Virus record (IMG/VR): IMGVR_UViG_3300027899_000001
Location: 270,373-334,372 of that record
DNA length: 64,000 nt
Source: a virus
Strand: one strand, 5' to 3'
Made by a program: the position numbers and the translations under genes. Below the pieces are notes generated by a model. It did not search any database. It saw only the letters and a program-made list of their open reading frames with translations, and was not told where the DNA came from. Shown here in pieces: positions 34,431 through 63,260 of this stretch (the first letter of the stretch is position 1; every line of letters starts with the position of its first letter).

Positions 34431-36203
34431 TTAAATAACTGAACCACTATTAGTTTCAAACCAAAGTGTAATATATTGAGTTTCTGGGTGGAAACCTGCG
34501 TCAACTAAAGCGTATCTAGTTTTGATGATAACTTTAGGAGCACCTGTACCTTCAGTAATAAGCTTAACGCTTTCAGCCATAAGGTATGGGCAGAATACTG
34601 TTCCTGGTTCATCAATAGCACCTTTTCTTCCTACAAGTACTCTGGTATCAGAATAAAGCATGTTAGGATCTACATAAAGAGTCATTCCAGCGATTGTTCC
34701 GAGAGGATACAATGAACCGTTAGATTGAGTAAATGTATTGGTTATAGGTGAGAATGTGTAACCAGCATTTGTTTGAAGAGCTGTAGCAATTTTAAGGTTA
34801 GTAACAATAAAGTTAGCAGGACCTCTTCTTCCTCTTTGCATGATAACGTTACCAGCTGCAAGAATATTAGCCATAACTCTTTTGATAATTGTGTCTTGGT
34901 TTTCAAATGTTGCACCAACTACTGATGTATATTTTGCGAATCCTGGAACAGTCATTGCTCCTGTAGTAACAGAACCAGCATCATTATATGCAAATGCAGT
35001 TGAATTAAGAGAACCTGTAGATGTACAGTTCATGTTAAGGTTAATACCTTCAACAGCGTTAGCTTTGATATGGTTTTTCCAACCGTGACCGAACAATCTT
35101 GAAAGAATGTGTTTGTTAATAGCTTGGCTAATTTCGTTGATTCCAGCATTTTCTACCATTGCGATAACATCAATACCCCATTGTTTATTAAGATCTTGAA
35201 TTTGTTCCTGAGTAACAGAAACTGATACTTGGAATGTGCCTACTTGTACAAATTTAGTAAATACCTGAAGACCAAGAGCTCTTGGATATTCCATTTCACC
35301 AACGCCTCTTTCCATAGGTTCATAAAGAGTAGTGCCTGAGACGAATGTTCCTCCCCAGTCAGCATTATCTGTTTGACCTGCACCGGTAAATCCTTGTACT
35401 TGATCTTCCAATGTGGAAATAAGTGTAGGATAAGTAGTAACATTATAAAGTAATGATTGATTTAATAGAGGAGCGACGTTTCCTGTACCATTGAAAATAT
35501 CAGCCAAATTATCACCTGCTGTTCCAAATGTTCCAGTTTTAAACATTGGGAAACCATCAATTCTTGATTTTCCAATATAAGTAGCTGTTAATGTAGAAGC
35601 ACCTGTAGATACGTTTGTTGCTGAGTTAAATATTAAAGATGTTCCATTAGTAATTGTTCCTGCTGTAATAAGAGCTTGAACAGATGCATCAAGTTGAATT
35701 TTGAATGCATGAGGAGCATCGTATTGACCATAAGCAGCAGAACCTTGGAAAGTAGCAGGATTTGCTGTTGCAGGACTAACTGCTGGTTGTGCGCCAAATG
35801 GTTGTTTTCCTCCAGCGTATACATAATCTAAATAGGATACAACTCCTGTTGGACCTGGCATAGGAACCACGTTAACAAGGTCAAAACCTATTGTTCTAGC
35901 GGCTACTTGAAGAGCCATAGGAAGAAGTGCAGGCCATTTGTCACCTGAACCTTTAACAGTTGTACCTGTAAATTGAGCTCCTGTAGTAGCTGCAACTGAT
36001 GCAGGAACTGCAGTACCAACACCTGGTACGTTGTAAAGAGTTGCATAAGGAACGGATACACCACCCATAGCAGCTTCATTTAATGCATGAAAATGTGCGT
36101 ATTTAGAAATCCAACTCAATCTGTTTTTATCTTTAAGACCAGTTACAGTTTCAATCATTGGAGACCATTTTTGCACAATTTGTTGTTCGTTTAATTGTTT
36201 CAT
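34431..36203 (-). CDS. Major capsid protein (T4 gp23-like)
   Basis: 590 residues, near T4 gp23 (521). The N-terminal ~43 residues are a propeptide: QIVQKWSPMIETVTGL parallels gp23, and HALNE/AAMGG parallels the gp23 cleavage site FLTE/AEIGG, predicting cutting after Glu43. Next come LLPMALQVAARTIGFDLVNVVPMPGPTGVVSYLDYVYAGG, the hallmark of gp23, and a C-terminal block TIAGMTLYVDPNMLYSDT...TGAPKVIIKTRYAL. It self-assembles into the head around the scaffold. Codon use is richer in G/C than most of the window, as expected for a highly expressed gene. Confidence 0.93.
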   Translation of the reverse strand: MKQLNEQQIVQKWSPMIETVTGLKDKNRLSWISKYAHFHALNEAAMGGVSVPYATLYNVPGVGTAVPASVAATTGAQFTGTTVKGSGDKWPALLPMALQVAARTIGFDLVNVVPMPGPTGVVSYLDYVYAGGKQPFGAQPAVSPATANPATFQGSAAYGQYDAPHAFKIQLDASVQALITAGTITNGTSLIFNSATNVSTGASTLTATYIGKSRIDGFPMFKTGTFGTAGDNLADIFNGTGNVAPLLNQSLLYNVTTYPTLISTLEDQVQGFTGAGQTDNADWGGTFVSGTTLYEPMERGVGEMEYPRALGLQVFTKFVQVGTFQVSVSVTQEQIQDLNKQWGIDVIAMVENAGINEISQAINKHILSRLFGHGWKNHIKANAVEGINLNMNCTSTGSLNSTAFAYNDAGSVTTGAMTVPGFAKYTSVVGATFENQDTIIKRVMANILAAGNVIMQRGRRGPANFIVTNLKIATALQTNAGYTFSPITNTFTQSNGSLYPLGTIAGMTLYVDPNMLYSDTRVLVGRKGAIDEPGTVFCPYLMAESVKLITEGTGAPKVIIKTRYALVDAGFHPETQYITLWFETNSGSVI

Positions 36204-50910: not shown

Positions 50911-50930
50911 ATAATATAGTTTTAATTTGA

Positions 50931-51003
50931 GGCCACAATCGGGATCGAACCGACTTCTCTGCGTTACGAAGGCAGAATCCTATGCCATCTAGACGATGCG
51001 GCC
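50931..51003 (-). tRNA. tRNA-Thr(CGT)
   Basis: 73 nt. Acceptor GGCCGCA/TGTGGCC, anticodon stem TCTGC/GCAGA with a C-C mismatch next to loop TTCGTAA (CGT), T-loop TTCGATC. No encoded CCA. Confidence 0.85.
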
Positions 51004-52236: not shown

Positions 52237-52245
52237 ATTTTTTGA

Positions 52246-52316
52246 GCCCTTACGCAGCTTCGAACTGCGAGTTCTACGATACCAACGTAGTGTTTTTCCT
52301 ATTGAACTATAAGGGC
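52246..52316 (-). tRNA. tRNA-Thr(GGT)
   Basis: 71 nt. Perfect acceptor GCCCTTA/TAAGGGC, anticodon stem CTACG/CGTAG with loop TTGGTAT (GGT), T-arm GCAG/CTGC with TTCGAAG. Confidence 0.92.
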
Positions 52317-52328
52317 ATTAAAAATCGT

Positions 52329-52404
52329 TCCGAAGGAGGGGGTCGAACCCTCATGTAACCAATTACCCTTTCAACAGTGTATAAGACAGGGGGGATACTC
52401 CGGA
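52329..52404 (-). tRNA. D-arm-less tRNA, probable Ile(TAT)
   Basis: 76 nt. Acceptor TCCGGAG/CTTCGGA (7 bp) and T-arm GAGGG/CCCTC with TTCGACC are excellent. A 7-nt linker TATCCCC replaces the D-arm. The loop CTTATAC (TAT) sits on a weak stem (CCTGT/ACTGT), and the variable region holds a GTAA-TTGG-TTAC hairpin. Alignment with the D-arm-less tRNA-Ile(GAT) at 63183 (shared TATCC, CTxATAC, GGTAATTxGGTT) supports this reading. A degenerate class II tRNA is the alternative. Confidence 0.6.
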
Positions 52405-52409
52405 GTGGA

Positions 52410-52522
52410 GCGTGTTCCTGGATTTGAACCAAGACTTCCGCAATTACGAGTGCGGTGTTCTACAAAGGATTTTCTCGTGAGAAATGGTACCAATTTCCTT
52501 TCCTTCCTTAAACTACACACGC
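52410..52522 (-). tRNA. tRNA with D-loop insertion and 8-nt anticodon loop
   Basis: 113 nt. Acceptor GCGTGT/ACACGC, D-stem GTTT/GAAC, anticodon stem CCGCA/TGCGG, T-arm CTTGG/CCAGG with TTCAAAT. The D-loop contains about 40 extra nt (52464-52505) that fold on themselves (AAAGGA/TCCTTT closing, inner TTCT/AGAA). The anticodon loop is CTCGTAAT, 8 nt. Reading after T33 gives CGT (Thr); dropping the C gives a normal Tyr-like GTA loop. It may need splicing or be a frameshift-type tRNA, or be a pseudogene. Confidence 0.65.
52464..52505 (-). other. Structured insertion within a tRNA D-loop
   Basis: The insert begins and ends in purine/pyrimidine runs that pair (AAAGGA with TCCTTT) and contains a GGTACC palindrome and a TTCTCACGAGAA hairpin. 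Removing it restores a D-loop of ordinary length (AAGG...GTA). Exact boundaries are uncertain by a few bases. Confidence 0.5.
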
Positions 52523-52529
52523 ATTAAAA

Positions 52530-52730
52530 AATTAACTATGAGCATAGCCGCCATTCTGTTCTATTCCACCATTTGTCTATGCCTCAACCTTGTTATTATA
52601 GACCAGCTCACCGTCTAAACTATTTTGAGTTGCATCCTCGGCGGTTCAATCGATTATTAGTCTCCCTCCTTAAGCTGTGATGTGGCGAACTTCCTCACCT
52701 TTCGGCGCGATGGATCCTCGGTAGTTAATT
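52530..52730 (-). ncRNA. rnpB: Miniature RNase P RNA
   Basis: A 201-nt RNA with the conserved bacterial RNase P RNA blocks in order. The ends pair as P1 (9 bp, 52722-52730 with 52530-52538). A GNRA hairpin CGCC-GAAA-GGTG stands at P3 (52696-52707). CR I reads GAGGAAGTTCGCC (52684-52696), and the CR II region contains AACCGCCGA (52638-52646). CR IV reads GAGGCATAGACAAATG (52570-52585). CR V is ACAGAA followed by TGGCGGCTAT (52545-52559), where TGGCG pairs with CGCCA of CR I as P4. Cellular forms are ~350-400 nt, so peripheral helices are missing. It would cut tRNA 5' leaders, presumably with host RnpA. Confidence 0.85.
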
Positions 52731-59713: not shown

Positions 59714-59762
59714 AGTTTATTATATATATTCATGGATAAAATATGAGATTTATATATTTAGA

Positions 59763-59836
59763 GCCCTGGAAGGGATTCGAACCCTCATCGTTCCGTTACA
59801 TTACTACAGCTTAGAAGACTGCTATGATACCAGGGC
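59763..59836 (-). tRNA. D-arm-less tRNA-Arg(TCT)
   Basis: 74 nt. Perfect acceptor GCCCTGG/CCAGGGC. A 7-nt linker TATCATA stands where the D-arm should be. Anticodon stem GCAGT/GCTGT with loop CTTCTAA (TCT), an enlarged variable region of ~20 nt containing GTAAT, and T-arm GAGGG/CCCTT with TTCGAAT. Confidence 0.8.
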
Positions 59837-63178: not shown

Positions 63179-63182
63179 TTGT

Positions 63183-63260
63183 GGGCAGAATGGGATTCGA
63201 ACCCACATTTTCAACCAAATTACCTTGGTCGTGTGTATCAGACACGCTGGATATCTGTCC
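63183..63260 (-). tRNA. D-arm-less tRNA-Ile(GAT)
   Basis: 78 nt. Acceptor GGACAGA/TCTGCCC (one mismatch), a 7-nt linker TATCCAG in place of the D-arm, a perfect anticodon stem CGTGT/ACACG with loop CTGATAC (GAT), and T-arm ATGTGGG/CCCAT with TTCGAAT. A variable region of ~23 nt forms an ACCAA/TTGGT hairpin. The clearest of the three D-arm-less genes. Confidence 0.82.

What the first reader, a model, noticed from the sequence alone, without database searches (positions are those of the whole stretch)
52410..52522. tRNA with a ~40-nt structured D-loop insertion and an 8-nt anticodon loop
Two anomalies in one gene. The D-loop holds a self-pairing insert (AAAGGA/TCCTTT outer helix), and the anticodon loop CTCGTAAT has one base too many. 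Bacterial tRNA introns normally interrupt the anticodon loop and are far larger self-splicing elements. Eight-base anticodon loops are known from +1 frameshift suppressor tRNAs. It might decode a programmed frameshift, be spliced by an unknown route, or be a pseudogene.
Basis: seen in the sequence. Interest (0 to 1): 0.83.

Follow-up and report, generated by a model that had tools for sequence, protein, structure and literature searches.

The report
Phage tRNA with elongated D-arm
A giant bacterial virus carries a threonine-type transfer RNA gene whose D-arm has grown to about four times its normal size; two related viruses have the same gene with paired bases preserved, so it looks like a working RNA and not a broken gene, although nobody has yet seen it expressed.

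Summary
The gene is tRNA-Thr-like. Standard finders miss it: ARAGORN gives nothing, and the tRNA model matches only the 3' half (13.6 bits). Its D-stem is intact. Its 49-nt D-loop carries a 6-bp helix and a 5-bp hairpin with loop TTGGTACCA. The anticodon arm is 5 bp plus an 8-nt loop (CU-CGU-AAU). Two related phages (79 and 77% capsid identity) carry the same gene at the same place, directly downstream of a phage RNase P RNA gene. All six helices are kept, with changes on both sides of seven base pairs. The insert is conserved better than the anticodon arm, which diverged but keeps its pairing and U33-NGU-A37. That argues against decay, and against an intron, for which the sequence offers no support. 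The 8-nt loop is not invariant (8, 7, 8), which weakens a frameshift role. Best reading: a functional tRNA-Thr variant, or tRNA-Thr-derived RNA, that keeps a structured, elongated D-arm; its advantage is unknown. In passing I found a covariation-supported phage tRNA class in which the strand pairing with positions 11-13 lies after the anticodon arm. No expression data exist.

The parts
52409..52522 (-). whole tRNA-Thr-like gene with elongated D-arm (113 nt plus discriminator U73 at 52409; no encoded CCA)
   Evidence: sequence; conserved in G009:7590-7704 and G004:33167-33285; helices
52516..52522 (-). acceptor stem 5' strand GCGUGUG; 6 bp, position 7-66 is G.A (A.G and G.A in the relatives)
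52410..52416 (-). acceptor stem 3' strand AACACGC
52510..52513 (-). D-stem 5' strand GUUU, invariant in 3 phages
52457..52460 (-). D-stem 3' strand GAAC, invariant in 3 phages
52461..52509 (-). 49-nt D-loop with structured insert
   Evidence: normal D-loops in this clade are 7-11 nt
52501..52506 (-). outer insert helix, 5' strand GAAGGA (pairs with 52464-52469)
   Evidence: in G004 GAAGGGA/UCUCUUC
52464..52469 (-). outer insert helix, 3' strand UCCUUU
52494..52498 (-). inner insert hairpin, 5' strand GGAAA
   Evidence: AGAAA/UUUCU in G009, GAGAA/UUCUC in G004
52480..52484 (-). inner insert hairpin, 3' strand UUUCU
52485..52493 (-). apical loop UUGGUACCA, identical in all three phages; holds a D-loop-like GG
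52438..52455 (-). anticodon arm, 5 bp plus 8-nt loop
52443..52450 (-). anticodon loop CUCGUAAU; anticodon CGU at 52446-52448 (Thr, codon ACG)
   Evidence: sequence
52417..52433 (-). T-arm CUUGG-UUCAAAU-CCAGG
   Evidence: sequence
52540..52719 (-). phage RNase P RNA gene, 17 nt upstream of the tRNA-like gene; same order in G009 and G004
   Evidence: RF00373 44.7 bits, E 7e-10, below gathering score 84; homologues

Best explanation
A phage tRNA-Thr gene, or an RNA derived from one, whose D-arm has been lengthened by a structured insert of about 40 nt in the D-loop: D-stem 4 bp, then a 6-7 bp helix, then a 5-bp hairpin with the loop UUGGUACCA. Shown by sequence comparison: the cloverleaf, both insert helices, and the core signals U8, A14, A15, U48, U33, NGU anticodon, A37, U73, G1-C72 and C2-G71 are all kept in three diverged phages. 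Inferred: the gene is transcribed together with the phage RNase P RNA just upstream, RNase P cuts its 5' end, CCA is added afterwards, and the insert stays in the mature RNA as an elongated D-arm that sticks out at the elbow. Inferred and open: what this is good for. My preferred guess is that it is chargeable with threonine and that its altered D and anticodon arms protect it from, or decoy, host enzymes that recognise tRNA, as is known for phage tRNAs with altered anticodon loops. The 8-nt loop is then a tolerated or protective change, not a frameshift device.
For: Homologues at the same locus, directly downstream of RNase P RNA, in two relatives from other metagenomes. Full-length tRNA-model matches for these two at 27.5 and 24.7 bits with the insert bridged. 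92.5% of structure cells paired, seven pairs with changes on both sides, five of 500 shuffles as high, and the structure slid by 1-3 columns pairs only 34-58%. All six helices form in each sequence when the insert is aligned by hand, one U.U mismatch apart. The D-loop plus insert is 92% identical between this phage and G009, like the T-arm (94%), against 50% for the anticodon arm and 58-76% for whole other tRNA gene pairs of the same two phages. The best other match in the window is tRNA-Thr(GGT) at 52245-52316, 40 bits, and discriminator U73 is shared with the phage's other tRNA-Thr genes. Precedent for protection: phage tRNAs escaping anticodon nucleases (PMC10264068).
Against: No transcript, charging or ribosome data. 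Only three sequences. Tool scores are below the tRNA cut-off in all three (13.6, 24.7, 27.5 against 29 bits). A GG placed at the tip of a roughly 15-bp arm cannot easily make the usual D-loop/T-loop contact. All three have a purine-purine mismatch at 7-66; G009 also has a U.U pair in the T-stem. In this phage the gene is redundant, since an ordinary tRNA-Thr(CGT) lies at 50930-51003 and ACG is rare (3 per 1000 codons). That leaves a non-decoding role fully possible. The escape idea was not tested.
Confidence: 0.5

Rival explanations
1. A tRNA-like RNA that no longer decodes: a decoy or sponge for tRNA-cleaving or tRNA-binding host enzymes, or a stable 3' element that lets RNase P mature the 3' end of the phage RNase P RNA by cutting at this tRNA's 5' end.
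For: The D-arm insert is kept while the anticodon arm drifts. The gene is redundant for decoding ACG. It follows the RNase P RNA by 17 nt here, and by similarly short AU-rich spacers in both relatives, with no terminator-like site between.
Against: U33, NGU and A37, the Thr-type acceptor and U73 are kept in all three, which a mere processing tag would not need. G003 has RNase P RNA without this gene, and so do LR756501 and LR756502.
Confidence: 0.27
2. The insert is an intron removed by an unknown route, giving an ordinary tRNA.
For: D-loop introns exist in archaeal tRNA-Glu of Methanopyrus (PMC3695527). Insert ends are paired with each other.
Against: No bulge-helix-bulge (the helix is 6-7 bp, flanked by 3/3 and about 2/10 internal loops). 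Far too short for group I or II, and no Rfam match. No RtcB in the phage record (a host enzyme is not excluded). Insert more conserved than the flanking anticodon arm, unlike an intron.
Confidence: 0.07
3. A +1 frameshift suppressor tRNA with an 8-nt anticodon loop.
For: 8-nt loops here and in G004. Such loops are known from +1 suppressor tRNAs (general knowledge).
Against: G009 closes to a 7-nt loop on a 6-bp stem, and the four-base reading would differ among the three phages. No frameshift site was sought. It does not explain the D-arm.
Confidence: 0.05
4. A decaying tRNA pseudogene.
For: Low model scores, redundancy, mismatch at 7-66, T-stem mismatch in G009.
Against: Compensatory changes in acceptor, anticodon and insert helices; conserved position and insert in three phages.
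Confidence: 0.11

Closest known systems
Bacterial and phage tRNA-Thr (NGU anticodon)
   Same: acceptor, T-arm, D-stem, U8/A14, A15/U48, U33, G35-U36, A37, G1-C72, C2-G71; U73 as in this phage's other tRNA-Thr genes
   Different: 49-nt structured D-loop, 18-20 nt anticodon arm instead of 17, mismatch at 7-66, model score below cut-off
Archaeal D-loop tRNA introns (Methanopyrus kandleri tRNA-Glu, PMC3695527)
   Same: structured insertion in the D-loop
   Different: no bulge-helix-bulge, no known splicing enzyme in this setting, and the insert is better conserved than the anticodon arm
Phage tRNAs with altered anticodon loops that evade tRNA nucleases (PMC10264068)
   Same: phage tRNA with an unusual anticodon loop
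   Different: there the changes are in the anticodon loop; that paper does not mention D-loop or D-arm changes; no nuclease is known here
Mini-hairpin D-loop inserts in relatives (G003 tRNA-Lys and tRNA-Phe, G004 tRNA-Gly)
   Same: extra bases in the D-loop of tRNAs of the same phage group
   Different: about 8-14 extra nt, otherwise ordinary tRNAs; no evidence of common origin

Membership tests
tRNA (Rfam RF00005) | scores above gathering cut-off of 29 bits | tested here: not met
   13.6 bits for the 3' half only; homologues 27.5 and 24.7
tRNA-Thr | cloverleaf helices | tested here: met
   acceptor 6 bp, D 4 bp, anticodon 5 bp, T 5 bp; compensated in relatives
tRNA-Thr | U33, anticodon NGU, purine 37, G1-C72, C2-G71 | tested here: met
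   all three sequences
tRNA-Thr | 7-nt anticodon loop | tested here: not met
   8 nt here and in G004; 7 nt on a 6-bp stem in G009
tRNA-Thr | D-loop of normal length | tested here: not met
   49 nt against 7-11 nt in 186 of 190
tRNA-Thr | charged with threonine and used on the ribosome | not testable with these tools
   needs experiment
archaeal-type tRNA intron | bulge-helix-bulge at the splice sites | tested here: not met
   helix lengths and internal loops; judged by eye
self-splicing group I/II intron | catalytic core of 200 nt or more, recognised by Rfam | tested here: not met
   about 45-nt insert; no such hit
+1 frameshift suppressor tRNA | conserved 8-nt loop reading four bases | tested here: inconclusive
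   8, 7, 8 nt in three phages; no frameshift site sought

The most novel reading that the evidence does not exclude
The RNA is a tRNA-derived functional RNA of a new kind: the elongated, sequence-conserved D-arm is a working domain (protein-binding or decoy) carried on a chargeable tRNA-Thr body and released from the phage's own RNase P RNA transcript by RNase P.
Probability: 0.25. Interest if true: 0.8.

Novelty: new variant of a known kind. Interest (0 to 1): 0.6.

Why it matters
tRNAs have very tight length limits in the D-loop because it docks on the T-loop and touches the ribosome. A phage lineage that keeps a large structured D-arm extension by compensatory evolution shows either that translation tolerates such a tRNA or that phages turn tRNAs into other tools. 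Standard tRNA finders miss or reject it, so similar genes may be overlooked. It sits beside a phage RNase P RNA and beside a tRNA of another unusual architecture (see noticed items), making this phage group a good place to learn how far tRNA structure can be changed.

Tried and rejected
BLAST of the gene against phage records: only partial T-arm and anticodon-arm matches. Exact pattern search of viral contigs with its anticodon arm: none; with its D-loop motif plus T-arm: only the two relatives. Looser pattern in viral and genome contigs: extra hits were chance matches, no tRNA. Covariance model R1 over 40 phage records: other hits looked at were ordinary-length tRNAs or not tRNAs, none with the insert; 61 Bacteroidota genomes: none at E 1e-8, with strict filters and no positive control. 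Protein-based search with the neighbouring 313-aa gene: no relatives. T4-type RNA ligase family PF09511: no hit, but the controls did not ring either, so uninformative. Short ORF starting at TTG inside the insert (MVPF...), ending at UAG in the anticodon loop of the two relatives: no clear coding signal, probably chance. Repeats or long antisense matches of the insert elsewhere in the phage: none beyond chance. Splicing endonuclease search, frameshift-site search and a host match were not done. Metagenome contigs could not be searched.

Full report
What was checked. The window lies in a 405,016-base virus record (window = bases 270373-334372) with a T4-like major capsid gene (34431-36203, minus) and about 40 tRNA genes, all on the minus strand. 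The finding is on the minus strand, 5' end 52522, 3' end 52410, with discriminator U at 52409. ARAGORN does not report it. The Rfam tRNA model sees only its 3' half, 13.6 bits, E 1.5.

Anatomy (shown directly by sequence and). Acceptor GCGUGU/ACACGC, 6 bp, with G.A at 7-66. U8 A9. D-stem GUUU/GAAC. D-loop of 49 nt: AAG, helix GAAGGA/UCCUUU, internal loop, hairpin GGAAA/UUUCU with loop UUGGUACCA, then GUA. A26. Anticodon arm CCGCA-CUCGUAAU-UGCGG, anticodon CGU for threonine. Variable loop AAGU. T-arm CUUGG-UUCAAAU-CCAGG. U73, no encoded CCA. The minimum-energy fold shows essentially this shape, but its energy is only about two standard deviations better than shuffles.

How unusual. In 841 kb of this phage and its relatives a strict structure scan found 190 tRNA-like genes; 186 have D-loops of 7-11 nt, and this is the only convincing one with an 8-nt anticodon loop. 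The scan demands a 4-bp D-stem, so it misses many tRNAs. One shuffled copy of the same DNA gave one false hit, also with a long loop (71 nt), so a long-loop hit on its own proves nothing; conservation does.

Conservation. Relatives were found through the capsid protein. Two fragments from other metagenomes hold the gene: G009 (IMGVR_UViG_3300031999_000135, capsid 79% identical) and G004 (IMGVR_UViG_3300028883_000709, 77%), found by DNA search and matched end to end by the tRNA model with the insert bridged, 24.7 and 27.5 bits. On an alignment of the three, 92.5% of structure cells pair; seven base pairs change on both sides, which 5 of 500 shuffles reach; sliding the structure by 1-3 columns drops pairing to 34-58%. 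With the insert aligned by hand both insert helices form in each phage: GAAGGA/UCCUUU, the same, and GAAGGGA/UCUCUUC; GGAAA/UUUCU, AGAAA/UUUCU and GAGAA/UUCUC. Three sequences are few, the structure was partly drawn from them, and relatedness inflates such counts.

Which part is constrained. Between this phage and G009 the D-loop with insert is 92% identical, the D-stem 100%, the T-arm 94%, the acceptor 73% and the anticodon arm 50%. Other tRNA gene pairs of the same two phages (presumed orthologues) are 58-76% identical over their whole length. Against G004 the insert is 60% identical in the machine alignment, while the loop UUGGUACCA is unchanged. The anticodon arm is 18, 19 and 20 nt long; its loop is CUCGUAAU, CUAGUAA on a 6-bp stem, and UUAGUAUU. 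U33, NGU and A37 are always kept.

Origin and identity. Within the window the best other match to a model of this gene is tRNA-Thr(GGT), 52245-52316, 40 bits. G1-C72, C2-G71, G35-U36 and U73 agree with the phage's own tRNA-Thr genes. Threonine identity is thus well supported by sequence but not tested. The phage already has an ordinary tRNA-Thr(CGT) at 50930-51003, and ACG makes up 3 of 1000 codons.

Setting. Seventeen nucleotides upstream lies a phage RNase P RNA gene, 52719-52540 minus: RF00373, 44.7 bits, E 7e-10, below the family's gathering score. Homologous RNAs are in G003, G004, G009 and the 642- and 735-kb phages LR756502 and LR756501. In G009 and G004 the tRNA-like gene follows it in the same way; in G003, LR756501 and LR756502 it does not. 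No terminator-like site separates the two. Joint transcription and RNase P cleavage between them are inferences.

Why not an intron. The insert is conserved better than the anticodon arm, lacks a bulge-helix-bulge, is far too short for self-splicing introns, matches no Rfam family, and no RtcB is found in the phage (the host is unknown). D-loop introns are known in archaea (PMC3695527). Confidence 0.07.

Why not a frameshift suppressor or pseudogene. The 8-nt loop is not invariant, so a fixed four-base reading is unlikely, though no frameshift site was sought. Decay does not produce compensatory changes in three helix systems, though the gene's low model score and redundancy leave about 0.1 for a pseudogene.

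Best explanation and limits. A tRNA-Thr, or a tRNA-Thr-derived RNA, that keeps an elongated D-arm: 0.50 for a chargeable tRNA variant, 0.27 for a non-decoding role such as decoy or RNase P processing element. The biological gain, perhaps protection from host tRNA-cleaving defences as proposed for other phage tRNAs (PMC10264068), is a guess. No paper was found in ten full-text searches that describes such a phage tRNA, but the library holds only openly licensed papers.

A wider observation. The next tRNA downstream, 52404-52328, belongs to a class in which no D-hairpin stands before the anticodon arm; instead the three bases before the arm pair with three bases after it, followed by a GG-containing D-loop-like stretch. 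A covariance model that did not contain this helix picked the class out clearly near 40 bits and above, against 34 bits or less for ordinary tRNAs, in further phages. In 19 sequences, 15 have three Watson-Crick pairs of nine different kinds, against a mean of 5.1 and maximum of 11 in 5000 random re-pairings; the sequences are related, so this is not a strict probability. A member lies in cultured Streptomyces phages such as StarPlatinum, unannotated there. This may matter more than the assigned finding and deserves its own study.

Noticed in passing
52328-52404 (-) Ile-TAT, 59762-59836 (-) Arg-TCT, 63182-63260 (-) Ile-GAT; relatives G003, G004, G005, G009, G010, G016, G019, G031, G038, G039, LR756501, LR756502: Class of tRNAs with no D-hairpin before the anticodon arm: positions 11-13 pair with three bases after the anticodon arm, then a TAA(T)TGG D-loop-like stretch. 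15 of 19 have full Watson-Crick triplets of nine kinds, against 5.1 on average in re-pairings; none in 61 Bacteroidota genomes, without a positive control.
   Followed up: partly
L187 (Streptomyces phage StarPlatinum MH576965.1, about 75281-75346): The same transposed-D-strand tRNA-Ile(GAT), 80-82% identical to the G004 copy in most of 77 Streptomyces phage records, unannotated; a cultured system for testing.
   Followed up: partly
52540-52719 (-); also G003, G004, G009, LR756501, LR756502: Phage-encoded RNase P RNA, below Rfam gathering score but E 7e-10 to 1e-5 for the copies that cmscan reported; not found described in the papers searched.
   Followed up: partly
L166:3974-4110 (-), relative phage G038: Possible tRNA-Asp(GTC) with a 73-nt AU-rich D-loop and perfect acceptor, T and anticodon stems; its best fold is not a cloverleaf, and the shuffled control gave one similar hit.
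   Followed up: no
G003:39704-39789 Lys-TTT, G003:39836-39917 Phe-GAA, G004:42346-42429 Gly-TCC, G000:359947-360026 Gln-TTG: tRNAs with smaller extra pieces in the D-loop, for example GCC-TTCG-GGC in the tRNA-Lys; D-loop growth seems to recur in this phage group.
   Followed up: no
L166:12238-12650 (-), relative phage G038: Phage-encoded tmRNA, RF00023, 95.5 bits.
   Followed up: no
52444-52493 (-): A TTG-started reading frame (MVPF...) runs from the apical loop of the insert into the anticodon arm; it ends at TAG in the anticodon loop in G004 and G009 but not here. Probably chance.
   Followed up: no
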